From the NCBI GenBank assembly GCA_949710005.1, contig OX453272.1:44127657-44191656 (forward strand): DNA of 64,000 nucleotides. The letters run 5' to 3'. The position numbers and the translations under genes were made by a program. Below are positions 36,087-51,467 of this stretch, in pieces. How positions within the stretch are numbered: position 1 is the stretch's first letter; the number at the start of each line of letters is the position of its first letter. The DNA is from Ricordea florida (lineage: Eukaryota; Cnidaria; Anthozoa; Corallimorpharia; Ricordeidae). Below the pieces are notes generated by a model. It saw only the letters and a list, made by a program, of their open reading frames with translations. It had not been told where the DNA came from and did not search any database.

Positions 36087-36242
36087 AGTAGTTGTGAATA
36101 TGGGGGAACCAGCACAATTTAATAAAAATAAAAAAATATTACAAAAATTGCGAGGGGAACCAACACAAATTAATAAAAATAAAAAATATTACTAAAATTG
36201 TGCGAGCCAGCACAAAAGATTTAATAAGCCTTTGCAAAGTTT

Positions 36243-36355
36243 CGGCCAAGCCCCTTCGTCAAGAGGGGCCGACAGGCGGAGCGAGCAACGCGAGCGGAGG
36301 GCGACTCCATCCTTGGCTGGCCAAGTCTCTGCAAAGACCACCCTCCCCAGAGACG
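36243..36355. repeat. GC-rich palindromic zone of the terminal repeat
   Basis: Within an otherwise AT-rich repeat lie hairpins such as GCCCCT...AGGGGC (36250-36269), CTTGGC-TG-GCCAAG (36312-36325) and GTCTCT...AGAGAC (about 36325-36355). An open frame runs through it (36200-36415) but starts without an ATG and is probably not coding. An identical inverted copy stands at 51199-51311. Confidence 0.6.
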
Positions 36356-36419
36356 ACTTACCGACACAAAATTTTTCAAGGAGAATGGAACCAGCACAAA
36401 AAAAATAATTTTTAATTCC

Positions 36420-36434
36420 TATTTAAAAACAAAA
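36420..36434 (+). promoter_or_regulatory. Early-type promoter motif of polymerase
   Basis: TATTTAAAAACAAAA starts 28 bp before the polymerase ATG. The same word precedes the zinc-repeat gene at the other end (51120-51134) because both lie in the terminal repeat. TATTTAAAAAGAAAA precedes the 90-aa minus-strand gene (46159-46173). Confidence 0.5.
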
Positions 36435-36447
36435 GAAAATATTGTAA

Positions 36448-39400
36448 ATGGAACAACAATTAAATGGATTAAAAGCTGAGCAATTAAAAAAATTGGTCTA
36501 CTGGTATAACCCACCAAGAAAGTCATATTATAATACTAAAGCGAAACGCATCGAATTTTTGATTAATATTCCCGAAATAGTTAATAATGTTCAAGAAATC
36601 ATTGATAATATTCGGGAAATTAGTGAATCATTAAATGCAACACCGCACAGGCCTGATCAGAATACTCCTCTACCAATTCCACTCCCGCCCCCGCCTCAAG
36701 CAAATTTATCAGCCCCGCAGCCAAGCACATCCCAAGATTTATCTGATGTATTTATTCCAGAAACACCACCCGGTTCTCCTGATCGATTTAGACCAGGCAC
36801 ACCGCCACCAATTCGCACACAAACTTTAATCAAAAATGAAAATAAAGATATTCCTAAAAAGAAGGAAATACTTATACCAACTCCCAGAAAAAATATTCCC
36901 TCCAAAAAATCAAAAGTGGCAGAGAAAATAAAGTTTTTTGAAGCGGCTAAGGATATCAACCACTATAAAAAACCCGCCGCTAAAAGAATATTCAAAAATT
37001 ACAAAGTGGAAGATAGAAAAAATTTTTATGAAGAGGTTTCAATTACAACTAATAAAAAAGGTTCTAATAAAAACCAAAGGAATATAATTAAAAATTATAA
37101 AGTGGAAGATAGAAAAAAGTTTTATGAATCTTTAAAAAATCTGGCAAATAAAAAAATCATAAAACCAATTCCAACGCCAAGAAAAAGGAAAAATGAAGCA
37201 AAATCTACTCCTAAAACAACAAAATCCGTCGCAAAAGATGAGCCGACTAATCAAGAACATGTTGAAGATTTTACGCCCGTAGAACAAGAAACAGCGCTCG
37301 ATGGATATCTGAAAACATATAGAATACATGGAAAACCATATAAAACTGATCGTTTAATTTTTAAAGAACTTGCATATTTACACCCAAAAGAAATCGTAGA
37401 ATTAGGATTAGATGAATTAACATTTATTAGAGAAATAAAACAGAAAGTTATTGACTTAATTAATAAGCAAAAGAAACCTCTAAAGCTGAAATTTACTTTT
37501 GTCTGTAAATTTGTAAAGATTGATTTTGAAAATGGCGGCCTATTTAGTAAAATAATTGACGATGCAGAACCATTTTTTCATAGCGAAAAACCAGTGGTTG
37601 TAACAGAATCAACGGATTTATCCAGCTTATTTGACAAGATGACTAACTATTTACTTGAACTTTTTACAAATTTTACGAATAATGGAAGTGGTTGGAAATT
37701 TAATGGCGTGAAATACTTCGACATAAAAATTGACCCGTTTGAACCAATTTCAGGAAGTAGTTATATCCCCCTACCAGAAAAATTAGCAAACAAAGGAGCG
37801 ATTATAAACCTCAGGAATGAGAATGATAATGAATGTTTTAAGTGGTCTGTAACTGAAGCGGTGTTTCAAAGAGAGAAAAATCCACAAAGAGTAAATAGAG
37901 AATTAATAGAAAACTCTAAAAATTTTAATTGGAAAGGAATAGAATTTCCCGCAAAATGGGTAGATATTGATAAGTTTGAGAAACAAAACCTATATTATAG
38001 GATTAATGTCTATGGTTATGATAATGAGGAATTATACCCTCTAAGAATAAGTGATAAAGAAAAAGGGCTTTTAATAAACTTACTTCTAATATCAAACGGT
38101 GAAACAAATCACTATTGTTGGATAAAGAATATTTGCAGGTTGGCAGTTTCACACACCACTAAACATAAAGAAAGGATTTACCTCTGCCCTAGATGCCTTT
38201 ATCATTCGCATAAAGAGGAAACATTGCAAAAGCATCTAGAATATTGTAAAGAACATGAAGCTGTTAGGGGTGAAATGCCAAGGGATAAAGACGGAAAACC
38301 TATATATCTTAAATTTATTAATTTTTACAAAAAAATGAAAGTACCATTTGTTGTATACGGTGATTTCGAGTGTTGCGGAGAATCAATAGATACCTGTTCA
38401 CCAGACAAAAGTAAAAGTTTTACAAATAAATATGCGAATCATAAACCGACAGGTTTCTGTTATATAATAAAGTTTTTCGATGAAAATTATGAACCTGTTA
38501 TTAGACGATATACCGCTAAATCTCCAGATGAAGATGTGGGAAAAATATTCATGGTTGAATTGGAAAAGGATATTAGAGAAATTTGCGAAAAAATTAAGCC
38601 CAATAAGAAAATGAATTGGATGACGCAAAGAGAAAAATACGAACATGAAAAAGCCAAAATTTGTCATATATGCGAAGAAGAATTATTAGAAAAAGATAAG
38701 GTAAAAGATCACTGCCATTATACTGGAAAGTATAGAGGAGCCGCCCACAGTGATTGTAATTTAAATTATAAGAATAAAAAATTCATACCAATCATTTTTC
38801 ACAATCTATCAGGATATGACTCACATCTTTTTATTAAGAATATTGGTTTAACAAAAGGTAAAGTAGACTGCATACCTAATAATGAGGAAAAATATATTTC
38901 TTTCACAAAACAAATTGTGCTTGGTAAATATATTAATAAAAAAGGAGAGGAAAAAGAAGATAAGCTGGATATTAGATTCATCGATTCATTTAAATTTATG
39001 TCAACAAGTATTGATAAATTAGTCACAAATCTTACAAAATGCGGAAAATGCGAAGCGTGTAAACCAGGAGATTGTATTAAGAGATATATAAAAGATGGGA
39101 AAATTATTCAGTATAAAGGTATTGGCAGGTGTGAAAAATGTAAGAATTGTCTGTTAGTTGAAAGTAGATGTCTTTCACCAAGTGATGATAAATTAGAAGA
39201 AACGAAAAAAGTATTTGGAGATAAGATGTATTTAATGTTGAGGAAAGGAGTATTCCCATATGACTATTTTGACAACCTCGATAAATTAAACGAAACCCAA
39301 CTTCCGCCAATAGAAGCATTTTACTCAAAATTAAACGGAAAACAAATATCAAAAGATGATTATGAACATGCTAAAAAGGTATGGAAAACTTTTAATATAA

Positions 39401-40935
39401 AAACAATGAGGGAATACCATGATCTATATCTTTTGTCAGACGCACTATTTTTAATGGATGTATTTGAGAATTTTAGGGATACTTGTATGAAGAATTATGG
39501 TTTAGATCCCGCCCACTATTATACATTGCCCGGTTTTGCTTGGGACGCCGCATTAAAGTATACTAAAGTGAAATTAGAGTTACTAACTGATAATAATATG
39601 TTACTTATGTTTGAGAAAGGAGTTAGAGGAGGCGTATCGCAAATATCAAAAAGATTCGCTAAAGCTAATAATCCATATTTAGAAGAATATGATCCAAATC
39701 AGCCGACAATATATATCACATATCAAGACGCAAACAACTTATATGGCGGGGGAATGAGTGAGCCGCTACCCACCCACGGGTTTGAATGGATGCGTGAGGA
39801 AGAATATGAAAACTGGAGAGATATACCTTGCGTGGTTGAGGTTGATCTAGAATATCCAGAAAATCTTCATGATTTACATAATGATTATCCTCTTGCCCCA
39901 GACAAACTTACAGTTAACAAGGTGGAAAAATTAATCCCAAACTTAAACAACAAGGAAAAGTATGTTGTTCATCGCGAAACTTTGAAAGAATATGAAAGTT
40001 TAGGATTAAAAATAACAAAGATTCATAGGGGTATTAAATTTGAAGAGTCAAAATGGTTAAAACCTTACATTGATTTTAATACAGAACTAAGAGCTGAAGC
40101 AAAGAATGATTTTGAAAAGGACTTTTTCAAGCTAATGAATAACGCCGTGTTCGGCAAAACAATGGAAAATATTAGAAAAAGGGTTGACATTAGATTAGTT
40201 ACAAATAAAAAAGAAGCTAGAAAACTAATAAAACAACCCAACTATCAACACCGCACTATCTTTTCTAAAAATCTAGCGGCTATTCATATGAAAAGAAAAA
40301 GGATAAAATTTAATAAGCCCGTTTACTTGGGTATGTGTATTCTAGATTTAAGTAAAAAAGTAATGTACGATTTTCATTATAATTATATTAAAAGGAAATA
40401 TGGAGATAAGGTTAAATTACTTATGACTGATACTGATTCACTCGTATATGAAATAGAAACTCTAGATTTTTACAAAGATATAAGCCCCGATGTTAGAGAA
40501 AAGTTTGACACTAGTAATTATCCTAGAGATCATCCTTCTAGAATTGAGCTTGTAAACAAAAAAGTAATAGGAAAGTTCAAAGATGAAATGGGCGGAATTC
40601 CGATAAAAGAATTTACGGGGTTAAGGTCTAAGTTATACTCAATATTAACAGATAAAAATAAAGAGATAAATAAGGATAAAGGAATTAAGCAATCAGTTGT
40701 GAAAAATACAATAACTCATAATGATTATAATGTTTGCCTAAAAACCAGAAAACCACAAATGAGAGAGATGAATATAATTAGAAGTCGATTACACAATGTT
40801 TATTCAGAAACTGTTAATAAAATCGCATTATCGGCTAATGATGATAAGAGAATAATTTGCGAAGATGGAATACATACTTTAGCTATTGGCCATTATCGGG
40901 TTAAAACAGAATCAGGAGGGAGTTCTGTATCATAG
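36448..40935 (+). CDS. Protein-primed family B DNA polymerase (1495 aa)
   Basis: It replicates the element's linear DNA from protein-capped ends. Residues 1-60 form a small helical SAP-like segment, followed by a Pro-rich linker and a Lys-rich stretch with a repeated NYKVEDRK-x-FYE unit (about 185 and 215). Exonuclease motifs follow: YGDFEC (about 636), HNLSGYDSH (about 785) and FIDSFKF (about 842). Between the first two is a Cys/His HNH-like insert, CHICEEE...DHCHYTGKYRG (about 737-765). A second insert, rich in CxxC (CGKCEAC, CEKCKNC; about 864-908), follows Exo III. Palm motifs: DANNLYGGGMS (about 1094), KLMNNAVFGKT (about 1227) and MTDTDSLVYE (about 1325). The C-terminal KVIGKFKDE and EFTGLRSKLYS are also conserved. 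It overlaps the integrase gene tail to tail by 43 bp. The frame is intact. Confidence 0.95.
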   Translation: MEQQLNGLKAEQLKKLVYWYNPPRKSYYNTKAKRIEFLINIPEIVNNVQEIIDNIREISESLNATPHRPDQNTPLPIPLPPPPQANLSAPQPSTSQDLSDVFIPETPPGSPDRFRPGTPPPIRTQTLIKNENKDIPKKKEILIPTPRKNIPSKKSKVAEKIKFFEAAKDINHYKKPAAKRIFKNYKVEDRKNFYEEVSITTNKKGSNKNQRNIIKNYKVEDRKKFYESLKNLANKKIIKPIPTPRKRKNEAKSTPKTTKSVAKDEPTNQEHVEDFTPVEQETALDGYLKTYRIHGKPYKTDRLIFKELAYLHPKEIVELGLDELTFIREIKQKVIDLINKQKKPLKLKFTFVCKFVKIDFENGGLFSKIIDDAEPFFHSEKPVVVTESTDLSSLFDKMTNYLLELFTNFTNNGSGWKFNGVKYFDIKIDPFEPISGSSYIPLPEKLANKGAIINLRNENDNECFKWSVTEAVFQREKNPQRVNRELIENSKNFNWKGIEFPAKWVDIDKFEKQNLYYRINVYGYDNEELYPLRISDKEKGLLINLLLISNGETNHYCWIKNICRLAVSHTTKHKERIYLCPRCLYHSHKEETLQKHLEYCKEHEAVRGEMPRDKDGKPIYLKFINFYKKMKVPFVVYGDFECCGESIDTCSPDKSKSFTNKYANHKPTGFCYIIKFFDENYEPVIRRYTAKSPDEDVGKIFMVELEKDIREICEKIKPNKKMNWMTQREKYEHEKAKICHICEEELLEKDKVKDHCHYTGKYRGAAHSDCNLNYKNKKFIPIIFHNLSGYDSHLFIKNIGLTKGKVDCIPNNEEKYISFTKQIVLGKYINKKGEEKEDKLDIRFIDSFKFMSTSIDKLVTNLTKCGKCEACKPGDCIKRYIKDGKIIQYKGIGRCEKCKNCLLVESRCLSPSDDKLEETKKVFGDKMYLMLRKGVFPYDYFDNLDKLNETQLPPIEAFYSKLNGKQISKDDYEHAKKVWKTFNIKTMREYHDLYLLSDALFLMDVFENFRDTCMKNYGLDPAHYYTLPGFAWDAALKYTKVKLELLTDNNMLLMFEKGVRGGVSQISKRFAKANNPYLEEYDPNQPTIYITYQDANNLYGGGMSEPLPTHGFEWMREEEYENWRDIPCVVEVDLEYPENLHDLHNDYPLAPDKLTVNKVEKLIPNLNNKEKYVVHRETLKEYESLGLKITKIHRGIKFEESKWLKPYIDFNTELRAEAKNDFEKDFFKLMNNAVFGKTMENIRKRVDIRLVTNKKEARKLIKQPNYQHRTIFSKNLAAIHMKRKRIKFNKPVYLGMCILDLSKKVMYDFHYNYIKRKYGDKVKLLMTDTDSLVYEIETLDFYKDISPDVREKFDTSNYPRDHPSRIELVNKKVIGKFKDEMGGIPIKEFTGLRSKLYSILTDKNKEINKDKGIKQSVVKNTITHNDYNVCLKTRKPQMREMNIIRSRLHNVYSETVNKIALSANDDKRIICEDGIHTLAIGHYRVKTESGGSSVS

Positions 40936-41969
40936 GGTATAACCTGTAATTCTTCTCTTACAAACCCTCGTCTTGGCCCATCTACTAAATAATACAAAAC
41001 TGGCTGATTTGGTGAAACGACGCTACGCGTAATATCATAAACTTTAATACTCCAAATAGGATCAGTGGCTCGTCTTTTTTCACCGCCTTCAAGTTCGCCA
41101 GGAGATAATAGATATCTAACTTTTACATAAGGAGACAATCTTACCTCATCAAGACCAACAACTCGACGATATCTTTTGGGTTCAATATCAACCTCTTTCA
41201 GTTTTATAGCCTTATCAGGTTCTTTACCAGTTATTCTAGTTGACGTATTATTCAAAGTTTTTAGAATAGCTGGTAATCTTTTCACCCATACCCTTGATCG
41301 GGCGGAGCCCTCCCCGCCTTTGGCGGATCGGGCATCACTAACCATTTCTTGTGCATATTGATGACTAAATAATCTTTCTCCCAATATTCTGTTTGCATTT
41401 TCCACAAATGCTTGAGCTCTATGATTACCAGCCTCACTTCTTTGCATTCTCACATTATGGTAATTCATGAGTTTAGTAACTTCTCCCATAAATTCTTTCC
41501 CAGGATCAACCATTAATGTTTTTGGGTATTTCAATCTTCTGGAATATATTTTCTTAAAAGCTTCTGATATCTCTCGACTTTCTTTTGAGGTTAATGGCTC
41601 AGCATCTTTATATCTCGAGGCGATATCAACCACAACTAACGCATATTTATATGTTTTTCTTCCGACTTTATCATGCGGTAAAAATAATAAATCTGCTTGG
41701 TGAATCTGATTGGGCTTATCCACAGTCCAGTGCGGTCTAGGTATATATTTAGGAGCAGGTAGATAGATTTGCCATATTGCTTGTTTTTCTAACCACCGTC
41801 TTGCCTCATTTTCACTTACTCTTGCTTTCTCTGCTAATTTAGGAATTGCAGAATATCCTTTCCAATACCCTTCGGTTGAATAATATATCCGCTCCAGCTC
41901 CGCTGGGGAGGACTTCGTCCGATCGAAGAGCGGGGCCGGCGTAGCCGATATTTTTGTGACGCTGTTCAT
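40893..41969 (-). CDS. Retroviral-type (rve) integrase of the Polinton (358 aa)
   Basis: It joins the element ends to host DNA, making the short target duplication. An N-terminal helix-turn-helix (about 28-62, ending ARRWLEKQ) is followed by the rve core with D93 (HQADLLF), D155 (MVDPGKEF) and E190 (AFVENAN), a correct D,D-35-E triad. A C-terminal SH3-like segment follows (VKVRYLLSP, WSIKVYDI, YYLVDG). Two GC-rich hairpin inserts lie inside the frame: residues about 6-27 and 211-226. Neither disrupts the triad. The gene diverges from the 63-aa gene with a 31-bp gap and converges on polymerase. Confidence 0.92.
   Translation of the reverse strand: MNSVTKISATPAPLFDRTKSSPAELERIYYSTEGYWKGYSAIPKLAEKARVSENEARRWLEKQAIWQIYLPAPKYIPRPHWTVDKPNQIHQADLLFLPHDKVGRKTYKYALVVVDIASRYKDAEPLTSKESREISEAFKKIYSRRLKYPKTLMVDPGKEFMGEVTKLMNYHNVRMQRSEAGNHRAQAFVENANRILGERLFSHQYAQEMVSDARSAKGGEGSARSRVWVKRLPAILKTLNNTSTRITGKEPDKAIKLKEVDIEPKRYRRVVGLDEVRLSPYVKVRYLLSPGELEGGEKRRATDPIWSIKVYDITRSVVSPNQPVLYYLVDGPRRGFVREELQVIPYDTELPPDSVLTR
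41300..41326. repeat. Double-hairpin GC insert in the integrase gene
   Basis: GGGC-GGA-GCCC is followed by CCGCC-TTT-GGCGG, two perfect stems of 4 and 5 bp with trinucleotide loops, flanked by GATCGGG on each side. It adds a Ser/Ala/Gly/Arg-rich in-frame segment (about residues 211-226) and is far more GC-rich than its surroundings. Confidence 0.7.
41894..41947. repeat. Triple-hairpin GC insert near the integrase start
   Basis: CCAGC-TCC-GCTGG, GGAC-TTC-GTCC and CGGC-GTA-GCCG are three perfect stems with trinucleotide loops in 54 bp. They encode residues about 8-26 of the integrase in frame, before its helix-turn-helix. The last hairpin shares its CGGC/GCCG stem with the insert at 47239-47249. 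Confidence 0.7.
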
Positions 41970-41981
41970 TTAAAAATAAAC

Positions 41982-41997
41982 AAGTATCTTATAAATT
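41982..41997 (+). promoter_or_regulatory. 16-bp start-proximal element of the 63-aa gene
   Basis: AAGTATCTTATAAATT ends 3 bp before the ATG at 42001. The same 16 bp without a mismatch end 3 bp before the capsid ATG (42203-42218). It is TATA-like, but its closeness to the ATG suggests either a very short leader or a role around the start. Confidence 0.6.
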
Positions 41998-42000
41998 GAA

Positions 42001-42192: not shown

Positions 42193-42202
42193 AGGTTAAC
42201 CA

Positions 42203-42218: not shown

Positions 42219-42221
42219 ACA

Positions 42222-43460
42222 ATGACGTCTGAAAAAATTAACCCAAACAGAATTCCCAAAGAACCCTTTGGCTTGAAAGCAGAATCAACCCTAAATCGGA
42301 TTACTCTAAATCCATCAACAGCCAGCCCCGGAGAAACATTATATATAAATATTCCGAAACTCGCCGAAAATTTGGTGATTGTGCCTGGTAGCGTATCTCT
42401 TCTATTTGACTTAGATGTAGAGGGTCATGCGAATAACACAGTTGTTAATAATGTGGGTCGTAATCTTGTAACCAGACTGAAAGTTCTTTTTGGAGGAGAA
42501 ACATTGCAAGATACCCAAAGGTATGATTTATTTCAAACGTATCATGATTTATTCTTAACCGAAGAAGAGCGCGAAGATAGATTAAAACAAGGTATTTCTC
42601 CCCCAAATATTAGAAAACTTAGAACAAAAGCTGGAGATGCAAAAACACAGGATGTAAAAGAAGTTGCTCTCGCCAATGTTCATGGTTCAAAGTACAGAAT
42701 ACCAATAAATCATCCTATTCTAAACGACCATGGCGTTTTTTATCCGAAAGCGCTGGAAAATCATCTTATATTTGAGATTACGCTTGCACCAATCACTAAT
42801 ATTCTTATTTATTCAGATACAACAAAAGCGCCTTCATATTCAATCAAAAACTTAGAGTTAGAATATTCTTCAATTTCTAGCGAATACTTGGCTCGTGAGG
42901 CGCAAGCAACTTATCAGGTAGGTAAAGGATTCTTTTATGAAAATGTTACCTTACACAAAACTTTTACATTTTCCATTGGTGGTGACGGAGTTATTAATCA
43001 ACATATTAATTTACCGAGAAGATCAATGACAGGAATATTGTTTTTGTTTTCAACACCTCAAGCTGCGGGAGCAAGGGATTCTGAAAATTTTTATAATCCG
43101 GGCATATCTTCCGTTGAAATTGACGTTGATGGTGTGCCAAATAGAATATACTCTAGGGGGATGATTCCGTCCGATCTTTGGGAATCCGTGAAGAAAAGAT
43201 TCCAACCAACGGGTGGACAAATTTCTTTGAAAGAAAAAGAATTTTACGCGGATAAGTTTGCTCTTTGGGTTGATACTAGAACTCATCCGGATAATGGTAT
43301 TCATGGCGGAGGACTTGCTCTAAATAATACGCATGATGGCGTAAAAATAGAAATTAAGAGGAAACAGGGTGGAACTGGAACCATAACTTGCCATATGTTT
43401 GTCGTGGCAGATGCAATGATGGAGATTATGAATTCAAGTTTGAGATCAATTAAGTACTGA
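42222..43460 (+). CDS. Major capsid protein candidate, double jelly-roll type (412 aa)
   Basis: It is predicted to build the capsomers. It is beta-rich throughout with no membrane segment. The stretch NNVGRNLVTRLKVLFGGETL (about 79-98), followed by a Tyr-rich LFQTYHDLF, resembles the strand-and-GG turn of viral double jelly-roll capsid proteins. The passage LENHLIFEITLAP, then a second domain from SIKNLELEYSSISSEYLA, has the expected bipartite order. From memory, similar proteins are annotated as F54H12.2-like in invertebrate genomes, next to an integrase-like F54H12.3; this needs checking. Position just before the packaging ATPase supports the role. At 412 aa it is shorter than most Polinton hexon-like proteins. 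It is intact. Confidence 0.65.
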   Translation: MTSEKINPNRIPKEPFGLKAESTLNRITLNPSTASPGETLYINIPKLAENLVIVPGSVSLLFDLDVEGHANNTVVNNVGRNLVTRLKVLFGGETLQDTQRYDLFQTYHDLFLTEEEREDRLKQGISPPNIRKLRTKAGDAKTQDVKEVALANVHGSKYRIPINHPILNDHGVFYPKALENHLIFEITLAPITNILIYSDTTKAPSYSIKNLELEYSSISSEYLAREAQATYQVGKGFFYENVTLHKTFTFSIGGDGVINQHINLPRRSMTGILFLFSTPQAAGARDSENFYNPGISSVEIDVDGVPNRIYSRGMIPSDLWESVKKRFQPTGGQISLKEKEFYADKFALWVDTRTHPDNGIHGGGLALNNTHDGVKIEIKRKQGGTGTITCHMFVVADAMMEIMNSSLRSIKY

Positions 43461-43510: not shown

Positions 43511-44137
43511 ATGGAAGATTTGCGAGATAAAATACCATTTCATTGTATTATAACTGGACCGACAAATTGCGGAAAAACAAAGTATTTAATTGAACAGCTC
43601 CGCGGATCATTCCGGAAAGTTTTTGAATATATTGTGTTAATTTGTCCGACCTATTCTAAAAATAAAACTTATCATAATTTTGCTAATAAGGATGAGCGTT
43701 TTTATGCATTATCTCCGGATGCAAGTAACGTAGAGGAGATTAATGAGTTACTAACTGATTGCCAAACTTTATTCTCCGGAACAAATACTTTAATAATTTT
43801 GGATGATTGCGCCGTTTCCTCCGATCTGAAGAAAAGATCCAATAAATTTATAGATTTGGCATTCTCTGGAAGGCACCATGGTTTATCGGTTTGGGTTCTC
43901 ACTCAGCAATTAACGTCGATAGCAAAACCATTCCGGGAAAATGTTGCCTGCGTCGTTACTTTTCATAATCCTTCCCAGAAAGGCATGAAAATGTTTTTCG
44001 AAGATTACGGCGGAGATTTGGATTATGAATTGGGAAAAAAATTTGTACAACTCCTGAAAACTGAAAAATATTCTAGGTTATGTTTATCTTTGCGATATCC
44101 ATTTAATTGCTATTTAGAGATACCCGAAGTGATTTAA
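43511..44137 (+). CDS. DNA-packaging ATPase, FtsK-HerA/A32 type (208 aa)
   Basis: It pumps DNA into the capsid using ATP. Walker A is GPTNCGKTK near the N-terminus (about 15-23). Walker B is TLIILDDCA (about 94-102), followed by the SGRHHGLSVWVLTQQ helix (about 119-133) carrying the sensor-like glutamine, and VACVVTFHNPS. The size is normal for Polinton and adintovirus-type ATPases. The upstream 50 bp hold CTAAAT...ATTTAG as a small inverted repeat. The next gene starts 8 bp after its stop. It is intact. Confidence 0.92.
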   Translation: MEDLRDKIPFHCIITGPTNCGKTKYLIEQLRGSFRKVFEYIVLICPTYSKNKTYHNFANKDERFYALSPDASNVEEINELLTDCQTLFSGTNTLIILDDCAVSSDLKKRSNKFIDLAFSGRHHGLSVWVLTQQLTSIAKPFRENVACVVTFHNPSQKGMKMFFEDYGGDLDYELGKKFVQLLKTEKYSRLCLSLRYPFNCYLEIPEVI

Positions 44138-44144: not shown

Positions 44145-44738
44145 ATGACAAAGCCGGAAGATTATATTGACCAAACAGATGGAAAATCTGACCGACCGGA
44201 GGGAGGAACAGAAAAGATTGAGTACGACGAAATTGAAATAAAACAAGAATCTCTTGCCATTCTCGCTGTTCTCGGGACAACAAAAGAATATTTAGGAATT
44301 GAAATGAGCCTGGGAGATGTAAAAAAATTATCCGCAAAAGATGTTGAAAAATATTTCAATCGTTATCAATCGGTAATGGGTAAGAAAATTAATGGCGGAT
44401 TGGTGGATTCTTCCCTTCAATTAGTTTCCAAACTTATTTCTTATTTAGTTCCAGTTGATGATATAGAAGCTCTTTGTTCTGATTTGAAGAACGATGATTT
44501 GGTTAATCGAGAATTAACAAACTTTGTTGGTCTCTTGGCATTAAAAGGAGGAAGACTGACAGCACTTGCTAGCGGGGTATTTCAGGTTGCTAAACACGTG
44601 AAATTGAACAAAAATCAACAAAAACCAATAGAAGGAGCAGTAAATTCTAACACAACTGATCGGCGCGCTGGCGCTTCCTATGCAGATCTTGATCAGGAAA
44701 CTAAGCAATCTGCTGAAGGTGTTGATACTGTGTACTAA
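44145..44738 (+). CDS. Polinton structural-cassette protein, unknown (197 aa)
   Basis: It has an acidic N-terminus, a mainly helical middle (VEKYFNRYQSVMGKKI, LVSKLISYLVPVDDIEAL) and a polar C-terminus with NTTDRRAGASYADLDQ. No membrane segment or enzyme motif is seen. It follows the ATPase by 8 bp and has no promoter motif of its own, so it is probably on the same transcript. It may be an internal capsid or DNA-associated protein, but that is inference. Confidence 0.7.
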   Translation: MTKPEDYIDQTDGKSDRPEGGTEKIEYDEIEIKQESLAILAVLGTTKEYLGIEMSLGDVKKLSAKDVEKYFNRYQSVMGKKINGGLVDSSLQLVSKLISYLVPVDDIEALCSDLKNDDLVNRELTNFVGLLALKGGRLTALASGVFQVAKHVKLNKNQQKPIEGAVNSNTTDRRAGASYADLDQETKQSAEGVDTVY

Positions 44739-45210: not shown

Positions 45211-45212
45211 TT

Positions 45213-45431: not shown

Positions 45432-45432
45432 A

Positions 45433-45825
45433 ATGGCGTCAATAGCAATGATGATTGGAGGGGCCTTAGTTAATGCGGCAGCATTTACCGGAGGAAATAT
45501 TCTTACAAGATTTATATTCGGTAAAAAAGCGGATACGGAAAAAATAAGACACGATAAAGCAATGGAAAAATATCAAAGGGATTACGCAGAATATCAGGAA
45601 AAAAGACAAAAAATGCTTGATTGGAAAATGAAGAAGAAGGAAGAAAAATATCAAGCATCAAAAAATATTTCGGCTACAAATCAAGCATTTGAATTGTACA
45701 GCCAAATGACTGAACCTAAATTCTCTGATTATTACAAACCAAGCGAAGAACAAAAGACAGGGGAAATGATATATGTTGGCGCAGGAATGATGGGTTTGGG
45801 TTACGCGGTCAGTAAATTATTATAA
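45433..45825 (+). CDS. Membrane and coiled-coil protein of the Polinton (130 aa)
   Basis: A hydrophobic N-terminus (IAMMIGGALVNAAAF) leads to a long charged helix rich in Lys, Glu and Gln (about 33-80, probable coiled coil). A conserved-looking SDYYKPSEEQ and a final hydrophobic stretch (VGAGMMGLGYAVS) follow. This layout, membrane-coil-membrane, recurs in invertebrate Polinton-type elements as I remember them; no function is known. Its stop codon merges into a hairpin at 45825-45858. Confidence 0.72.
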   Translation: MASIAMMIGGALVNAAAFTGGNILTRFIFGKKADTEKIRHDKAMEKYQRDYAEYQEKRQKMLDWKMKKKEEKYQASKNISATNQAFELYSQMTEPKFSDYYKPSEEQKTGEMIYVGAGMMGLGYAVSKLL

Positions 45826-45858
45826 TGTTATGTAACCAGTAATTGGGTTATATAACAT
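45825..45858. terminator. 13-bp hairpin between convergent genes
   Basis: ATGTTATGTAACC pairs with GGTTATATAACAT (12 Watson-Crick pairs and one G-U) around an 8-base loop. It begins on the last base of the stop codon of the 130-aa gene and lies 7 bp from the stop of the convergent 90-aa gene. It is placed to end both transcripts. Confidence 0.65.
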
Positions 45859-45864
45859 AAGGCA

Positions 45865-46137
45865 TTATTTTTTATTAAATTTCGAAGCCACTATTTTCGT
45901 CATTTCTTCATCACTAATACTAGGATCATTTTCTATTCCATATTTTTCAGTTACTTTTGCTCTTATTTCTCTTTTATATTCTTCAAAGTCTCTATCTGGA
46001 TCATGTTCTTTTTGCATTTGACTTAATATTTTACAAGCATCTAGCGGGCTCATATTTATTCCAAATTTTTTAGCGTATTTTACTAAATCCAAATTACTAA
46101 TTGTATTAGTATAATATTTTTTTTCTTCGTTGCTCAT
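45865..46137 (-). CDS. Antisense small charged protein, unknown (90 aa)
   Basis: The only minus-strand gene inside the structural block. It is very rich in Lys, Glu and Asp (DPDRDFEEYKREIRAK), helical, with no membrane segment. Its upstream word TATTTAAAAAGAAAA matches the polymerase-type promoter rather than the late word. So it may be an early regulator set among late genes; that is inference from position and motif. No family is recognised. Confidence 0.65.
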   Translation of the reverse strand: MSNEEKKYYTNTISNLDLVKYAKKFGINMSPLDACKILSQMQKEHDPDRDFEEYKREIRAKVTEKYGIENDPSISDEEMTKIVASKFNKK

Positions 46138-46158
46138 TTTATTTTTTCTTTTATATTT

Positions 46159-46173
46159 TTTTCTTTTTAAATA
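46159..46173 (-). promoter_or_regulatory. Early-type promoter motif of the 90-aa gene
   Basis: On the minus strand TATTTAAAAAGAAAA starts 36 bp before the ATG and differs by one base from the polymerase motif. Confidence 0.45.
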
Positions 46174-46203
46174 TCAATTTTGATTTTATTTCCGACCCAA
46201 GGT

Positions 46204-46214
46204 AATCTAAAGAT
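46204..46214 (+). promoter_or_regulatory. Late motif AATCTAAAGAT, 326-aa gene
   Basis: It ends 23 bp before the ATG (46238). Four exact or one-base variants of this word stand at nearly the same distance before four genes. Confidence 0.65.
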
Positions 46215-46237
46215 TTCCTACAGATGAGTAAAAAATC

Positions 46238-47218
46238 ATGGCAGAAGGCGGTATGGAAGTAGATGATTTGGACCCAACTGAACTAAATGAAACAAAAGGC
46301 AATGATGATGATTATGATGATACAATTGAAATGAACCCGATTGGACAAACATCCGCCAGTTATGGCTATGATGAGGAAGAAGAAGAAACTTCGCTTGGAG
46401 GCAATAATGAAAAACGCCCTCTTTTGTTAAAAAATACGAAAGAAAAAGAACAAAAAATTTCAGAAGATGAAATAAAAACAGTATACCCGCGCGCAAAATT
46501 TTCAAAATTCATAAAAGGAATAAGCGGGGCATTCAAAGAACCTTTCATTAAACTGCAAAGAGATAATGCTGCTAAATATGTTCTTAGAAACGGAGAATTC
46601 ATAAATGAAAAAACCGGGGCTAAACTTACCAGCGCCCAATTGAAAAATTACTTGGGACCAAGAGCAGAAGAAATTGTAGAAGAAAATAATCGCGAAAATG
46701 CAAAGACAAAAGAATTACAAAACAAAAAGATGGAGGAGAAAAAATTTCTTGAGGAAAAACCATTGAAAACACCAGAGGAGAGAACGCGAATAGAGGAATT
46801 AAATATAGAAATTGAAGAAGACGAAAATGAAATAGCCACCCGAGATCGTGAGTCTGAGCAAATACAAGATAGAATGTCATTGCGAGAACGAGTGAAGGCT
46901 ATCTTTAAAAAATATGGTTTTACAGCTTTTGCTGTTCTAAGCGCGGTGGGTGTCGTCATTGGAGTAATAGTTTCTAGCCTTTCAAAGGGCTTATCCACTT
47001 TGGGGAGGGGTGTTGGAAATGGCTTGAAAAATCTTGGTAAAAAACTGGGGAACATATTACCTGGTATGGTTGGCGCAATAGTTAGCTTTCTTTTCAAAAC
47101 CGCGGGTGAGGTAGTTGGATTTTTAGGAAAGAATGCTTGGCTTTTGATAATGGCCGTAGTTCTATATTTTGTGGACCGACTAAAAGGAGGAACAAGTATA
47201 AAGAAGAAAAGAAAGTAA
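46238..47218 (+). CDS. Polinton membrane-active protein, unknown (326 aa)
   Basis: It has an acidic N-terminus (Asp/Glu runs to about residue 55), then a charged coiled-coil-like middle (about 140-210, EENNRENAKTKELQNKK). Hydrophobic or amphipathic segments with Gly-rich spacing follow: TAFAVLSAVGVVIGVIVSSL (about 230-249), LGRGVGNGLKNLGKKLGN, MVGAIVSFLF, LLIMAVVLYFV. A basic end KKKRK closes the protein. The layout suits a virion protein that disturbs or crosses a membrane, by loose analogy with adenovirus protein VI; that is inference. Confidence 0.72.
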   Translation: MAEGGMEVDDLDPTELNETKGNDDDYDDTIEMNPIGQTSASYGYDEEEEETSLGGNNEKRPLLLKNTKEKEQKISEDEIKTVYPRAKFSKFIKGISGAFKEPFIKLQRDNAAKYVLRNGEFINEKTGAKLTSAQLKNYLGPRAEEIVEENNRENAKTKELQNKKMEEKKFLEEKPLKTPEERTRIEELNIEIEEDENEIATRDRESEQIQDRMSLRERVKAIFKKYGFTAFAVLSAVGVVIGVIVSSLSKGLSTLGRGVGNGLKNLGKKLGNILPGMVGAIVSFLFKTAGEVVGFLGKNAWLLIMAVVLYFVDRLKGGTSIKKKRK

Positions 47219-47225
47219 CAAATTT

Positions 47226-47249
47226 CAGCGTAGCTGGACGGCAAAGCCG
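47226..47249. repeat. Intergenic double-hairpin insert
   Basis: CAGC-GTA-GCTG then CGGC-AAA-GCCG are two 4-bp stems with trinucleotide loops, 2 bp apart, directly followed by the late word. It is the same design as the two inserts in the integrase gene. It sits where other genes have their long hairpins, so it could also serve as a terminator. Confidence 0.65.
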
Positions 47250-47259
47250 ATCTAAAGAT
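47249..47259 (+). promoter_or_regulatory. Late motif GATCTAAAGAT, 206-aa gene
   Basis: It ends 25 bp before the ATG at 47285. One base differs from the other copies (G for A at the first position). Confidence 0.65.
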
Positions 47260-47284
47260 ATCTTGTCGTTCAGTAAAATACAAT

Positions 47285-47905
47285 ATGGGAGAATACAATG
47301 GAATTTATCCTCAATTACCTAATAATAATTTCCATACACAAGGCGGAGATGGCGCAATTAATTTCAGATTACAAAAATCAAGCGAGGTATTGCAAAATCT
47401 CGAGAAGGAAATCAAACATTACGAAGAAGTGAGAAAAAAATATAATAGAGCCAGAGGAATATGTACAAAAATAAGTGTTTCTGGCGGTTTTATTTCCGTT
47501 ATCCTATCCGCAAGCGGGCTTGGAACTTCTCTCACGGGTTTCGGCGCTATAGTCGGAGTTCCTTTAGGCGTTGTGGGTGGGGTTTTTGGAGGATTATCTG
47601 TTGGATTTGGTATTGCTTCAAAAAGTCTTTCTGGTAAAGTTAGTAAACACGAACAAACAGTAGCAATTGCAAAATCAAAATTAAACACCATTAACGACTT
47701 AGTCTCAAAAGCTTTGAAAGATAACTCTATTTCCGATCAAGAATTTTCCATAATTTTGGCGGAATTGGAAAAGTTTCAAAAACTGAAACAGGAGGTTCGT
47801 CAAAAATTCAGAAAAGATTCGGAAAAAAACTTCGACATGAGTATAATAAGGAAGAAAGTTCGAGAAGATCTATTAAAAGAACTTACCGGAGGGAAAGGTC
47901 ATTAA
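47285..47905 (+). CDS. Polinton protein with hydrophobic core, unknown (206 aa)
   Basis: It starts with a coil-like charged helix (about 30-55, LQNLEKEIKHYEEVRKKY), followed by a long Gly/Val/Ile-rich hydrophobic region (about 66-117: GGFISVILSASGLG, FGAIVGVPLGVVGGVFGG). A helical charged half follows (KLNTINDLVSKALKDN, ELEKFQKLKQEV). This coil-membrane-coil plan is shared with other small proteins here. The role is unknown; a virion or host-membrane protein is likely. Confidence 0.72.
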   Translation: MGEYNGIYPQLPNNNFHTQGGDGAINFRLQKSSEVLQNLEKEIKHYEEVRKKYNRARGICTKISVSGGFISVILSASGLGTSLTGFGAIVGVPLGVVGGVFGGLSVGFGIASKSLSGKVSKHEQTVAIAKSKLNTINDLVSKALKDNSISDQEFSIILAELEKFQKLKQEVRQKFRKDSEKNFDMSIIRKKVREDLLKELTGGKGH

Positions 47906-47965
47906 AATTTGTTTACGAGAAAACGGAAGTTGGTTGTAATTGTTTCGCTGGCATTAATTAAATTT
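47906..47965 (+). other. Short spacer before the hairpin of the 539-aa gene
   Basis: Sixty bases between the 206-aa stop and the hairpin; no motif recognised. Confidence 0.4.
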
Positions 47966-48020
47966 ACATCTTATTCTTAATCTAAAGATCAGAAAAATTG
48001 GAAAACAAAGAATAAGATGT
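47966..48020. terminator. 13-bp hairpin enclosing the late motif, 539-aa gene
   Basis: ACATCTTATTCTT (47966-47978) pairs perfectly with AAGAATAAGATGT (48008-48020). The 29-base loop opens with AATCTAAAGAT (47979-47989). The right stem contains the start codon at 48017. It may end the upstream transcript or sequester the start. Confidence 0.65.
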
Positions 48021-49636
48021 TATTGGATGATTTCAAAACCCGATACCCTAGAGCAAGCCTTGAAAAATTTACATTTGTGAATGACTCATTTGGTGGTTAT
48101 ATTAAATGGAAAGTTAATGGGGCGACAATTATGTCTGATGACGATCCTTCTGGAAAAACATGGACTGTTAATCTTTCTAATAATTTGAAAACATTATTAT
48201 GGGAAGATTTGGGGTTAGAAAATAAAGTAAAGGTAAGTTCCTTTCCCAAAAGTTTAACATTTACAAAACAACCATATCCAATACCCGGAATTAAATTCGA
48301 TGAATTTGCTCTTGATGTTACAAAATTATTAACCAATCTGAATATATATGTTTCAGAAAAAGATAGTTTCACTGCGACAATGAAGAATATTTTTAAAAAT
48401 CAAACTGTGGGATTTACCAGTGGAAAAGAAACTAGAGCTTGGTTGAGTAAACCAAATATTAATCAATGGCCGCAACAATTAAACATGGCGGTTTGGTGCG
48501 CATCTTCAGGAAGTGGAGTAAGTTTAAGTGATATTTTTGGATACCCCAAAGTTATTAGAAGTTTTTTCGTATTTCACATTTACTTTACCATAAGAAGAAT
48601 AATTCAAGAATTAAAAGTTCCATTGCCTGGGGGAGAAACTTTTTCTTTGAAAAATAATCCGTACGACAAAAATGCTTATAATAGATTATGCGCAGAATTT
48701 GGGTTAAGCAATGATCAAGATTACAAGGGATGGAACAAAACTTTAGCGGATTTTAGATTCAAAGGAGGCGCAAACCATGGAGCAGGTGATATATTCATTG
48801 ATTATGGGGGAGGATATGCAGACCCTGATGCGGTTCCGGGGAGCGAAGCCGCGCAAGCAAAGGGCGGTGGATTTCAAAATGTCAGAATTGTAAGAAATTA
48901 TGATACAGAAGCTAATATTTGGCCAAGCCGCGATCATAAATTTTACGACGATGGGGGTAGAAAAAATATGGGAAATTTAGTATCAATGCTTCGAAATGAT
49001 TATTTTGTTGATTTTCAATACGCTTGGTTTATACCAGAATCCGGGCATGGATTAACAAGGGCTGGATTGGGAAGAATAAATAGATCGATTGAAGCTTTTG
49101 TTTATTGCGTTTTAGGCGCACAAGTTAATACCAGAACTTCAATTGTTAGTAAGGGAGGTGGTGGTTTTGAAACCCAACAAAATTTTATAACTTTATTCGA
49201 AAGTTCTGTGATTGAAAATGATGTGTCCCAATCAATTCAAAGATATCAAACGGCGGTTCAAGAATCAAAATCTCGCCTTGATTTGGCTGTAGCTCCAGGT
49301 GTTTGGTTAATGCCGAGCAATTTAATAATAAATACGGAAAGCGTTATTGGGTATAATAATGATTTGAAAAGGGTAACAGAAGATATGACTTTTGGGGTAA
49401 ATAATACAATAAACGCGGAAACAAAAAACGTCGGAATAAGACATAGTTTGGGAGCAACAAAGGTCTTATTAAATACCAATCCTCAACCCGCAAAACCCCA
49501 ACAACAAACCAAAAACGATAAATCAAGCAAAAATGAAGAAAAAGTTAGTAACATAGAAGAAACATCTTCTCACCAAAATAATCTCATTATTTTAATGCTT
49601 GGAGGAGGATTATTATCCTGGTTTTTATTTCGTTAA
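48017..49636 (+). CDS. Large structural-type Polinton protein, C-terminal anchor (539 aa)
   Basis: The longest late gene. The body is mixed alpha/beta with Gly-rich loops (FKGGANHGAGDIFIDYGGGY, about 251-270) and a conserved-looking RNDYFVDFQYAWFIPESGHG region. A low-complexity linker (Pro, Gln, Lys, Asn; about 485-515) leads to a C-terminal membrane segment (ILMLGGGLLSWFLF). This C-tail anchor suggests an exposed virion or host-membrane protein, such as a spike or attachment protein, but no fold is recognised and the role is inference. The hairpin of the next gene begins on the base after its stop. It is intact. Confidence 0.75.
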   Translation: MLLDDFKTRYPRASLEKFTFVNDSFGGYIKWKVNGATIMSDDDPSGKTWTVNLSNNLKTLLWEDLGLENKVKVSSFPKSLTFTKQPYPIPGIKFDEFALDVTKLLTNLNIYVSEKDSFTATMKNIFKNQTVGFTSGKETRAWLSKPNINQWPQQLNMAVWCASSGSGVSLSDIFGYPKVIRSFFVFHIYFTIRRIIQELKVPLPGGETFSLKNNPYDKNAYNRLCAEFGLSNDQDYKGWNKTLADFRFKGGANHGAGDIFIDYGGGYADPDAVPGSEAAQAKGGGFQNVRIVRNYDTEANIWPSRDHKFYDDGGRKNMGNLVSMLRNDYFVDFQYAWFIPESGHGLTRAGLGRINRSIEAFVYCVLGAQVNTRTSIVSKGGGGFETQQNFITLFESSVIENDVSQSIQRYQTAVQESKSRLDLAVAPGVWLMPSNLIINTESVIGYNNDLKRVTEDMTFGVNNTINAETKNVGIRHSLGATKVLLNTNPQPAKPQQQTKNDKSSKNEEKVSNIEETSSHQNNLIILMLGGGLLSWFLFR

Positions 49637-49682
49637 TGTTTTGATTACATAATCTAAAGATGAATATGTTGTAATCAAAACA
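49637..49682. terminator. 13-bp hairpin enclosing the late motif, 211-aa gene
   Basis: TGTTTTGATTACA (49637-49649) pairs perfectly with TGTAATCAAAACA (49670-49682). The 20-base loop holds AATCTAAAGAT (49651-49661). The hairpin fills the whole space between the upstream stop (49636) and the next ATG (49685). Confidence 0.7.
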
Positions 49683-49684
49683 AA

Positions 49685-50320
49685 ATGCTGAGTATTACAA
49701 TGTATGATTCTGAAACCCGGGTTTATTTAGATCCACCGCTGAAAAATCTTCGTGAGATACAGCTCCTGGATTGTAATATGCAAACCAAAAGACTGATTAA
49801 TTTCAAGGATCAACAGATATTATTCAAAGATAATAATCAGCCCCTAATAATAATACAGCCTGGTTCATATTCGTTGCGTGATATTCAATCAATCTTTCTT
49901 AATGATACTGATAGGGAAAAGATAACAATCATTGAAACAGACACTGTTGACTATCTTTATTCCAATAAGAACTTCAAAATAAAACTTACGAGAGGGTTGG
50001 CGTTTGGTTTAGGTGTGCCTGAAGCTATAAATCCTGGAAAATTATACCCCATAAATATACAGTTTAAGGAGCCGTTGAGACTTATGTGTAGCATAGTGGA
50101 TAATAAATATTCATATATGAATAACACCAAATATGGAGAACTTGTGAAACTCGCGCCGTCAAACCTACTTGCAAACATACCCTCAAAGGATTACCCAACA
50201 ATTCCGATTCAAAAATATGAGAACCCCATAAACCACTTTGATTTATCTATCTTAGACAATGATTGGGAAAAACTTGATTTGCGAGGATTGCCAATAACTT
50301 TTAGTTTAAGATTTAGATAA
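49685..50320 (+). CDS. Possible minor capsid protein (211 aa)
   Basis: Beta-rich, with no membrane segment. It opens with REIQLLDCNMQTKRLIN and ends INHFDLSILDNDWEKLDL followed by ITFSLRFR. A C-terminal pattern of a hydrophobic strand, an acidic turn, then a final alternating strand also closes some Polinton and adintovirus virion proteins as I know them. A penton or vertex role fits its place as the last late gene, but the homology is not certain. It is intact, under the late motif, and converges on the zinc-repeat gene across a 12-bp hairpin. Confidence 0.6.
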   Translation: MLSITMYDSETRVYLDPPLKNLREIQLLDCNMQTKRLINFKDQQILFKDNNQPLIIIQPGSYSLRDIQSIFLNDTDREKITIIETDTVDYLYSNKNFKIKLTRGLAFGLGVPEAINPGKLYPINIQFKEPLRLMCSIVDNKYSYMNNTKYGELVKLAPSNLLANIPSKDYPTIPIQKYENPINHFDLSILDNDWEKLDLRGLPITFSLRFR

Positions 50321-50350
50321 ATTTCGGTTCGGGTGGTCCTTCTGGTCTTT

Positions 50351-50384
50351 TGTTATATAATCCAAAAAGAGTGATTATATAACA
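50351..50384. terminator. 12-bp hairpin between convergent genes
   Basis: TGTTATATAATC pairs perfectly with GATTATATAACA around a 10-base loop. It lies 30 bp after the 211-aa stop and overlaps the last codons of the convergent zinc-repeat gene (50375). Confidence 0.65.
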
Positions 50385-51106
50385 TAATTTTTTTCATAAC
50401 ATTCTTTACAAAATGCCTTCTGTCTATTGTGTTCACAAATTTGTGATCCTCCGCATAACTTACAAAAATTTCTTTGTTTTCCATGAATACATATTCCTTT
50501 ACCACCGCATTCTTTGCAACGCGCCTTCTGTTTTTTATGTAAACATATTTGCGATCCTCCACAATCTCTACATTGATTCCTTTGTTTTTTATGCTCACAT
50601 ATTTGTGATCCTCCACAATCTCTGCAATAAGCTTTATTTCTATTATGTTCGCATATTTGCGCTCCTCCGCACTCTTTACATCTTAATTTCTGCCTTTTAT
50701 GAATACAATAATAATGATACATATTAGTTTTAAGTTCTGAAGTGGGTGGCGGTGTGCCTGGTCTAAATCGATCAGGAGAACCGGGTGGTGTTTCTGGAAT
50801 AAATACATCAGATAAATCTTGGGATGTGCTTGGCTGCGGGGCTGATAAATTTGCTTGAGGCGGGGGCGGGAGTGGAATTGGTAGAGGAGTATTCTGATCA
50901 GGCCTGTGCGGTGTTGCATTTAATGATTCACTAATTTCCCGAATATTATCAATGATTTCTTGAACATTATTAACTATTTCGGGAATATTAATCAAAAATT
51001 CGATGCGTTTCGCTTTAGTATTATAATATGACTTTCTTGGTGGGTTATACCAGTAGACCAATTTTTTTAATTGCTCAGCTTTTAATCCATTTAATTGTTG
51101 TTCCAT
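50375..51106 (-). CDS. SAP-like head fused to six zinc-type repeats (243 aa)
   Basis: Residues 1-121 match the first 121 of the polymerase because this part lies in the terminal repeat. From there the protein changes to six 19-residue repeats of the form C-x-H-x6-C-x2-C-G-G (CEHNRNKAYCRDCGGSQI and variants; about 130-237). Each could bind zinc. Similar C-x-H...C-x2-C-GG repeats occur, to my knowledge, in giant-virus and protist proteins. With a shared early promoter and a shared head, it may act with the polymerase at the DNA ends, for example as a terminal or regulatory DNA-binding factor; that is inference. It is intact. Confidence 0.85.
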   Translation of the reverse strand: MEQQLNGLKAEQLKKLVYWYNPPRKSYYNTKAKRIEFLINIPEIVNNVQEIIDNIREISESLNATPHRPDQNTPLPIPLPPPPQANLSAPQPSTSQDLSDVFIPETPPGSPDRFRPGTPPPTSELKTNMYHYYCIHKRQKLRCKECGGAQICEHNRNKAYCRDCGGSQICEHKKQRNQCRDCGGSQICLHKKQKARCKECGGKGICIHGKQRNFCKLCGGSQICEHNRQKAFCKECYEKNYVI

Positions 51107-51467
51107 TTACAATATTTTCTTTTGTTTTTAAATAGGAATTAAAAATTATTTTTTTTGTGCTGGTTCCATTCTCCTTGAAAAATTTTGTGTCGGTAAGTCG
51201 TCTCTGGGGAGGGTGGTCTTTGCAGAGACTTGGCCAGCCAAGGATGGAGTCGCCCTCCGCTCGCGTTGCTCGCTCCGCCTGTCGGCCCCTCTTGACGAAG
51301 GGGCTTGGCCGAAACTTTGCAAAGGCTTATTAAATCTTTTGTGCTGGCTCGCACAATTTTAGTAATATTTTTTATTTTTATTAATTTGTGTTGGTTCCCC
51401 TCGCAATTTTTGTAATATTTTTTTATTTTTATTAAATTGTGCTGGTTCCCCCATATTCACAACTACT
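50745..51467 (-). repeat. Right terminal inverted repeat (723 bp)
   Basis: Inverted copy of 36087-36809 with the same length and no difference found by eye. It contains the early promoter word (51120-51134), the GC-rich structured zone (about 51199-51311) and the 51-bp tandem repeats (51329-51452), and ends CACAACTACT. Confidence 0.9.

What the first reader, a model, noticed from the sequence alone, without database searches (positions are those of the whole stretch)
36087..51467. Intact, recent Polinton/adintovirus-like genome with matching 723-bp ends
All 15 frames are open. The two terminal repeats are equal in length with no difference found by eye, and a 5-bp duplication is readable. The Penelope element it hit is full of stops and shifts. 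This points to a recent insertion with full virion and replication gene content, so it could still make particles or move.
Basis: partly seen in the sequence, partly recalled or inferred. Interest (0 to 1): 0.88.

Follow-up and report, generated by a model that had tools for sequence, protein, structure and literature searches.

The report
Intact virus-like element, very many copies
A 15-kilobase virus-like mobile element sits freshly inserted in what is probably a cnidarian's chromosome, one of a very large population of relatives in the same genome, and its two ends carry the start of two different genes.

Summary
In detail: 36087-51467 is bounded by 723-bp inverted repeats without a difference and a 5-bp duplication (GTCCT), inside a decayed Penelope-like element. 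Fourteen genes are open, among them protein-primed PolB, integrase, capsid protein and packaging ATPase. It works like a Polinton but is a variant: no protease found, a capsid protein whose weak model ranks large-DNA-virus proteins first, and 5-bp, not 6-bp, target duplications (25 of 29 copies read; 4 undeterminable). PolB (left) and a zinc-finger-repeat gene (right) both start inside the repeat and share 121 residues; in 19 of 19 readable copies of this repeat type both frames are open as far as read, and in 16 of 19 the two starts match each other best or jointly best. And the same 538-Mb genome holds about 60 copies of this repeat type and 1,868 places with a capsid-gene 30-mer (control 0); the best 101 capsid genes scored are unbroken. 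Capsid, ATPase and integrase show purifying selection (pN/pS 0.09-0.16) and copies are mosaics. Best reading: a recently active population of integrating, probably virion-forming viruses. Particles, expression and host species are untested.

The parts
36082..36086 (.). 5-bp target site duplication, left copy (GTCCT)
51468..51472 (.). 5-bp target site duplication, right copy (GTCCT)
36087..36809 (+). left terminal inverted repeat, 723 bp; holds upstream region and first 362 nt of PolB
50745..51467 (-). right terminal inverted repeat, 723 bp, identical; holds upstream region and first 362 nt of the zinc-finger gene
36448..40935 (+). protein-primed DNA polymerase B, 1495 aa; N-terminal module homologous to Rho_N/SAP-like starts of relatives, OTU-like Cys463/His555, Exo I-III, endonuclease VII-like insert, Pol motifs A, B, C (motif names recalled)
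40893..41969 (-). retrovirus-type integrase, 358 aa (Pfam rve, E 2.9e-9)
42222..43460 (+). major capsid protein, 412 aa, double-jelly-roll type
43511..44137 (+). genome-packaging ATPase, 208 aa (Pfam Pox_A32, E 7.2e-12; Walker A and B)
44145..44738 (+). unknown, 197 aa
44776..45168 (+). unknown, 130 aa
45213..45431 (+). unknown, 72 aa
45433..45825 (+). unknown, 130 aa
45865..46137 (-). unknown, 90 aa
46238..47218 (+). unknown, 326 aa, hydrophobic C-terminal region (by eye)
47285..47905 (+). unknown, 206 aa, hydrophobic segment (by eye)
48017..49636 (+). fast-evolving protein, 539 aa, hydrophobic C-terminus (by eye); two types (about 537 and 508 aa) among copies
49685..50320 (+). fast-evolving protein, 211 aa, penton/minor-capsid candidate (weak, by eye)
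50375..51106 (-). zinc-finger-repeat protein, 243 aa; residues 1-121 identical to PolB, then six CxH-x6-CxxC units
35954..36055 (-). interrupted target: Penelope-type reverse transcriptase (by eye), left piece
51469..51531 (-). interrupted target: Penelope-type reverse transcriptase (by eye), right piece
33949..34143 (-). GIY-YIG nuclease remnant near the target (Pfam E 8e-4, below cut-off)

Best explanation
This is an integrated, coding-complete Polinton-like virus element of a lineage that seems to be cnidarian, and one member of a large, recently active, recombining population in one animal genome. Shown: identical terminal repeats, target duplication, restored target frame, intact catalytic residues, many near-complete relatives, purifying selection on capsid, ATPase, integrase and the zinc-finger gene. 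Inferred life cycle: the integrase joins the ends to a target with a 5-bp stagger; PolB starts copying at each end by protein priming (the short terminal duplications AGT-AGT, AG-AG-AG, ACT-ACT and TGA-TGA fit the slide-back known for such polymerases, recalled); an OTU-like domain in PolB may cut the priming part off; capsid protein and ATPase package the DNA. In this subfamily the upstream region inside both repeats gives both end genes the same control sequence: PolB on one side, a zinc-finger protein on the other, and both begin with the very same Rho_N/SAP-like module, because the repeat reaches 362 nt into both genes. I infer that this module binds the element's ends or a partner protein and that the zinc-finger protein is an end-binding cofactor or regulator of PolB, kept matched to it because the repeats homogenise.
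For: Repeats and duplication. PolB motifs across 121 aligned rows (Cys463 121 of 121; His555 120 of 121; Exo I Asp 119 of 121; motif C Asp-Thr-Asp 116 of 116 ungapped). Integrase, ATPase. Capsid: Pfam PF16903 precomputed in 5 of the 120 relatives listed, fold rankings. Copies: 60 forward and 61 reverse repeat ends, control 0; 1,868 capsid 30-mer places with up to 3 mismatches, control 0; 101 of 101 scored capsid genes full length without stops, the best of 6,187 candidates. pN/pS: capsid 0.108 (16 copies), ATPase 0.093 (17), integrase 0.163 (14); zinc part 0.112, shared part 0.159 (19). Both repeat-crossing frames open in 19 of 19 pairs, PolB as far as read, 310-379 codons; own PolB start nearest or joint nearest in 16 of 19. 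Zinc-finger gene near the end away from PolB in 10 of 10 capsid-ranked copies; Rho_N in 8 of 8 of those scanned.
Against: No expression, particle or transposition data. Some copies are broken: capsid gene full in 16 of 19, ATPase 17 of 19, integrase within 5% of length in 14 of 19, capsid gene broken in 1 of 4 further places. The capsid model is weak (pLDDT 59.9, pTM 0.44) and its TM-scores low (0.2-0.3). No protease or penton was identified. The window's own start does not reach Rho_N in Pfam; the link runs through relatives. In 2 of 10 capsid-ranked copies another gene lies between the zinc-finger gene and the repeat (L086, L088), so one shared control region for the pair is not general. Copies were chosen by similarity, which favours young and intact ones.
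Confidence: 0.8

Rival explanations
1. A transposon that moves only inside the germ line; capsid genes are carried along and no virions are made.
For: Very many places in one genome, target duplications, copies chromosomal. A parent copy could be resident: only 15 other copies were compared gene by gene, and one search lists capsid proteins 98% identical elsewhere in the genome.
Against: Capsid and ATPase pN/pS (0.108, 0.093) are lower than that of the integrase (0.163). The window copy has no repeat difference, yet none of the 15 copies compared is close to it in DNA in any of five regions (nearest 3.5-14%).
Confidence: 0.2
2. The shared first 121 residues are a side effect of repeat growth: only PolB needs them and the zinc-finger gene merely inherits the copy.
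For: In other repeat families the repeat edge lies near the start codons (7-43 nt inside in five pairs, outside in L085 and L087), so it drifts. Selection on PolB alone would keep both copies clean if the repeats homogenise.
Against: Zinc-finger proteins of other families have a Rho_N start of their own (8 of 8 scanned), so such a module was probably there before; frames stay open in 19 of 19.
Confidence: 0.4
3. A decaying fossil that only looks intact.
For: Most vertebrate Mavericks are degraded (PMC8097293, passages).
Against: 0 of 723 repeat differences; upper age 0.2-2.1 million years at assumed rates of 1e-8 to 1e-9; 14 genes open.
Confidence: 0.03
4. Misassembly or a free viral contig joined to host sequence.
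For: None found.
Against: Target duplication and target frame, position 44 Mb into a 48.6-Mb contig, the same end anatomy at 18 further sites (one with an outer end not located).
Confidence: 0.01

Closest known systems
Polintons/Mavericks (Polintoviricetes)
   Same: Protein-primed PolB, rve integrase, packaging ATPase, double-jelly-roll capsid protein, 15-16 kb, long inverted repeats, (AGT)2//(ACT)2 ends (also reported for vertebrate Mavericks, PMC8097293, passages).
   Different: 5-bp instead of 6-bp target duplication; no protease found; zinc-finger end gene sharing PolB's start. At least 101 unbroken capsid genes here against a maximum of 38 intact elements in one vertebrate genome (PMC8097293, passages); the two counts are not of the same thing.
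Cnidarian Polintons (such as those of Nematostella and Hydra)
   Same: Nearest named PolB relatives are Nematostella vectensis (P0249, P0258). Cnidarian capsid genes are reported outside the main Maverick-Polinton cluster (PMC10120064, passages); the Hydra Polinton capsid protein retrieved only PBCV-1 Vp54 (PMC4028283, passages), which also ranks first here by fold.
   Different: No description seen of the repeat-crossing gene pair, the zinc-finger end gene or such a copy number (listings; Starrett et al. 2021 not held).
Meldviruses such as Meld23486
   Different: Here p72 and Vp54 rank above D13; no sequence comparison with Meld23486 was possible.
CxH-x6-CxxC repeat proteins of giant-virus type (the type name is recalled)
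   Same: Same 18-residue unit; 2,284 relatives of the 243-aa protein, 120 listed, one named as from a viral metagenome.
   Different: Here fused to a Rho_N-type start and placed at a Polinton end.

Membership tests
[quoted passage not shown]
   215 homologues, 120 listed; motifs in 121 aligned rows
Polinton/Maverick | rve-type integrase | tested here: met
   Pfam rve 2.9e-9
Polinton/Maverick | Packaging ATPase | tested here: met
   Pox_A32 7.2e-12
Polinton/Maverick | Double-jelly-roll major capsid protein | tested here: met
   Capsid_N 8.6e-4, below its cut-off; PF16903 in 5 of 120 listed relatives; the 50 Foldseek rows shown are capsid or scaffold proteins of this kind, but model confidence and TM-scores are low
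Polinton/Maverick | Penton/minor capsid protein | tested here: inconclusive
   211-aa candidate by eye only; its model failed
Polinton/Maverick | Adenovirus-like (Ulp1) cysteine protease; reported in 74% of Polintons (PMC4028283, passages) | tested here: inconclusive
   No convincing protease match among the 14 ORFs scanned with Pfam
Polinton/Maverick | Long terminal inverted repeats | tested here: met
   723 bp, 100%
Polinton/Maverick | 6-bp target site duplication (as in vertebrate Mavericks) | tested here: not met
   5 bp in 18 of 19 and 7 of 10 pairs, the rest undeterminable
Adintovirus | PolB with N-terminal OTU-like domain | tested here: inconclusive
   Candidate catalytic Cys and His conserved; fold not tested
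Adintovirus | Hexon recognisable by BLASTp to reference adintoviruses | not testable with these tools
   No reference hexon sequences in hand
Adintovirus | Integrase with C-terminal chromodomain | tested here: inconclusive
   Pfam listed only rve at E up to 0.1
Meldvirus of the Meld23486 kind | Adintovirus-like PolB and integrase with a poxvirus D13-like capsid protein | tested here: inconclusive

The most novel reading that the evidence does not exclude
An animal genome houses a live, recombining swarm of nearly two thousand integrating-virus loci (about 5% of the genome if each is a full element), in which polymerase and a zinc-finger partner form an end-paired system with Rho_N starts. Growth of the repeat into the two genes then overwrites one start with the other, so that polymerase and partner carry the same recognition module: a built-in way for a virus to keep its replication parts matched while elements recombine.
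Probability: 0.32. Interest if true: 0.87.

Novelty: new variant of a known kind. Interest (0 to 1): 0.74.

Why it matters
Virions of Polintons have long been predicted; a genome with so many unbroken, recently inserted copies makes it possible to ask directly whether these elements still form particles, and gives a population large enough to measure selection and recombination. The 5-bp duplication sets this lineage apart from the 6-bp vertebrate Mavericks. The repeat-crossing gene pair is a concrete, testable case of how inverted repeats can couple the evolution of two genes at opposite ends of a genome.

Tried and rejected
No relatives in IMG/VR, phage records or prokaryote genomes. PDB sequence searches with PolB and the capsid profile gave nothing useful. 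PHROGs gave endonuclease VII, terminase-like and weak matches. The single-sequence model of the 211-aa protein failed (pLDDT 30.8) and was not searched. A profile of PolB starts (103 rows, window left out) matched the window's zinc-finger protein at E 0.0015 but did not list the window's PolB at E up to 10: weak support. No second copy of element proteins or repeat lies elsewhere in the window. Similarity of the two end proteins' starts beat all or all but one of 300 shuffles in 6 of 10 capsid-ranked pairs; in 4 it did not, and the PolB frame picked by my rule is doubtful in five pairs (L083, L085, L087, L097, L101). I first took the residue sharing for a property of the whole group; the capsid-ranked sample showed that it is special to the window's repeat subfamily. 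A further copy of that subfamily, L093/L094, could not be read because its other end is masked. Two single ends, L045 and L046, were fetched and left out of all counts. RNA families and tRNAs: none. Host species stays an inference. Within-pair repeat differences are not all zero: one pair has 25 mismatches and 4 gaps. pN/pS values are pooled uncorrected Nei-Gojobori counts from non-independent pairs.

Full report
Observation. The element lies at 36087-51467. Its two 723-bp inverted repeats are identical and flanked by GTCCT on both sides. When one GTCCT is left out with the element, a reverse-transcriptase-like frame runs across the joined flanks; with four or six bases left out it does not. 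The peptide looks Penelope-like to me (recalled; Pfam found no match), and a GIY-YIG remnant (E 8e-4, below cut-off) lies nearby. I count 14 genes covering 90% of the element. The window is at 44.13-44.19 Mb of contig C1 of a 537.8-Mb assembly in 48 contigs, so the element is chromosomal.

Two genes start inside the repeats. The repeat holds the upstream region and the first 362 nt of two frames: PolB on the left and a 243-aa protein on the right, identical over 121 residues. The rest of the right protein is six CxH-x6-CxxC units, of a type with 2,284 database relatives, 120 listed, one named as from a viral metagenome. Two database proteins, on contigs of 16.4 and 33.0 kb, have the same fusion.

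Copies in the same genome. A search with the repeat gave 63 matches, with 40 of 1,179 candidates scored. I read both ends of 18 further copies, taken from that list (two single ends were fetched too and left out). Of the 19 pairs including the window, 18 have a perfect 5-bp duplication, no two alike; for the 19th (L041/L042) the left outer end was not located in the stretch fetched. In 19 of 19 both repeat-crossing frames are open: the zinc-finger gene to its stop (237 or 243 aa), PolB as far as read (310-379 codons). The copy's own PolB start is the nearest match of its zinc-finger protein in 13 and joint nearest in 3 of 19; in 3 another copy is nearer. Repeat mismatches within pairs are 0, 0, 7, 1, 3, 2, 12, 1, 10, 4, 25 (with 4 gaps), 0, 0, 0, 1, 4 (1 gap), 0, 0 (partial) and 2, over 442 (the partial one) to 1034 bp. 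So insertion has gone on recently and repeatedly. At assumed rates of 1e-9 to 1e-8 per site and year the window copy is at most 2.1 to 0.2 million years old (95% bound).

How many. A plain 31-nt string from the repeat end, with up to three mismatches, occurs 60 times forward and 61 reverse, with none for the reversed control: about 60 elements of this repeat type. A plain 30-nt string from a conserved part of the capsid gene, with up to three mismatches, occurs 888 and 980 times, control none. If each of the 1,868 marks a 15.5-kb element this is about 29 Mb or 5% of the genome; that step is inference. The 101 capsid genes scored out of 6,187 first-look candidates are all full length without stops, but they are the best ones. 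In the 19 repeat-ranked copies the capsid gene is full in 16, the ATPase in 17, the integrase within 5% of length in 14 (four others are open over 329-340 aa, one is short) and the 211-aa gene in 19; two of the copies without a full capsid gene are the long ones, where the stretch read may have missed it. In four places from the listing the capsid gene is full in 3. For comparison, the highest number of intact Mavericks in one vertebrate genome was 38 (PMC8097293, passages); that counts whole elements.

Other repeat families. Ten copies taken at every tenth rank of the capsid list mostly have other ends (AGAGAGG, ACTACT, TGATGA). Seven of 10 show a 5-bp duplication, two of them after a one-base shift of the end, and 3 could not be read. 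A zinc-finger gene with 4 to 6 units lies near the end away from PolB in 10 of 10; in L086 and L088 another gene lies between it and the repeat. Of 8 such proteins scanned from other repeat families, 8 match Rho_N, 7 above the curated cut-off; I left out L088 and L094. PolB starts match Rho_N in some relatives (P0247, P0254, L095) and not in others (P0250, P0265, P0289, L089). In five pairs the repeat ends 11, 43, 7, 12 and 16 nt inside the frames (L089, L091, L095, L097, L099; that L097's left frame is PolB is doubtful); in L085 and L087 it ends before them. In L091/L092 the first 14 residues are shared. So Rho_N starts on both end genes look older than the sharing, and in the window's subfamily the repeat seems to have moved inwards and replaced one start by the other. 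That the zinc-finger gene is not always outermost made me lower the odds of the boldest reading from 0.35 to 0.32.

Selection and mosaicism. Pooled pN/pS is 0.108 for the capsid gene, 0.093 for the ATPase, 0.163 for the integrase, 0.385 for the 211-aa and 0.341 for the 539-aa gene, 0.112 for the zinc part, 0.159 for the shared start and 0.323 for the PolB linker. Only full-length genes entered (16, 17, 14, 19 and 19 copies). The 539-aa gene comes in two types of about 537 and 508 aa (9 and 10 copies; synonymous difference 0.48 between types), as one would expect of an exposed, perhaps host-binding, protein (inference). Distances of 16 copies in five regions correlate poorly (r from -0.13 to 0.66), and the window's nearest relative differs by gene: the elements look like mosaics. 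Low pN/pS on capsid genes is the argument that Barreat and Katzourakis used for vertebrate Mavericks (PMC8097293, passages); it supports passage through virions but does not show it.

What it is. It works like a Polinton. It is not a strict member by the 6-bp duplication, which was tested and not met. The nearest published setting is the cnidarian Polintons, whose capsid genes fall outside the main Maverick-Polinton cluster (PMC10120064, passages), and the meldviruses with poxvirus-like capsid proteins (PMC11071296, passages and section 16). I saw no report of repeat-crossing PolB and zinc-finger genes in the listings, which cover open-licence papers only. The host is probably a cnidarian: the named PolB relatives that I saw are Nematostella and Porites, and at lower identity aphids. 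This is not proven.

Noticed in passing
G000:C8:30161473-30162071: Two facing repeat ends only about 600 bp apart: looks like a short internally deleted derivative that keeps both ends.
   Followed up: no
G000:C9:998136-1015311: Two forward repeat ends 1.3 kb apart before one reverse end: possible nested or partly duplicated insertion.
   Followed up: no
G000:C14:25626027-25648333 and G000:C11:5847745-5866789: Copies of 22.3 and 19.0 kb with repeats and 5-bp duplications; probably carry later insertions (capsid gene not found whole in the stretches read).
   Followed up: partly
L084, L086, L088, L092, L096, L098, L100, L102: A further open frame of about 196-231 aa beside the zinc-finger gene in other repeat families, outside it in L086 and L088; not seen in the window's element.
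   Followed up: no
window 8938-10788 (+): 616-codon open piggyBac-type transposase (Pfam DDE_Tnp_1_7, E 2.2e-88; the name piggyBac is recalled).
   Followed up: no
window 16821-18416 (-): Open frame of 531 codons with a LicD-family match (E 6e-6).
   Followed up: no
window 34618-35343 (-): Piece of a non-LTR retrotransposon (zf-RVT, E 1.6e-10) beside the target.
   Followed up: no
window 36898-37128: Three direct repeats of 45 nt in the PolB linker, giving repeated lysine-rich motifs.
   Followed up: no
G000:C11:23524154 and 23543518: Two unbroken capsid genes in opposite orientation 19 kb apart, perhaps neighbouring or nested elements.
   Followed up: no
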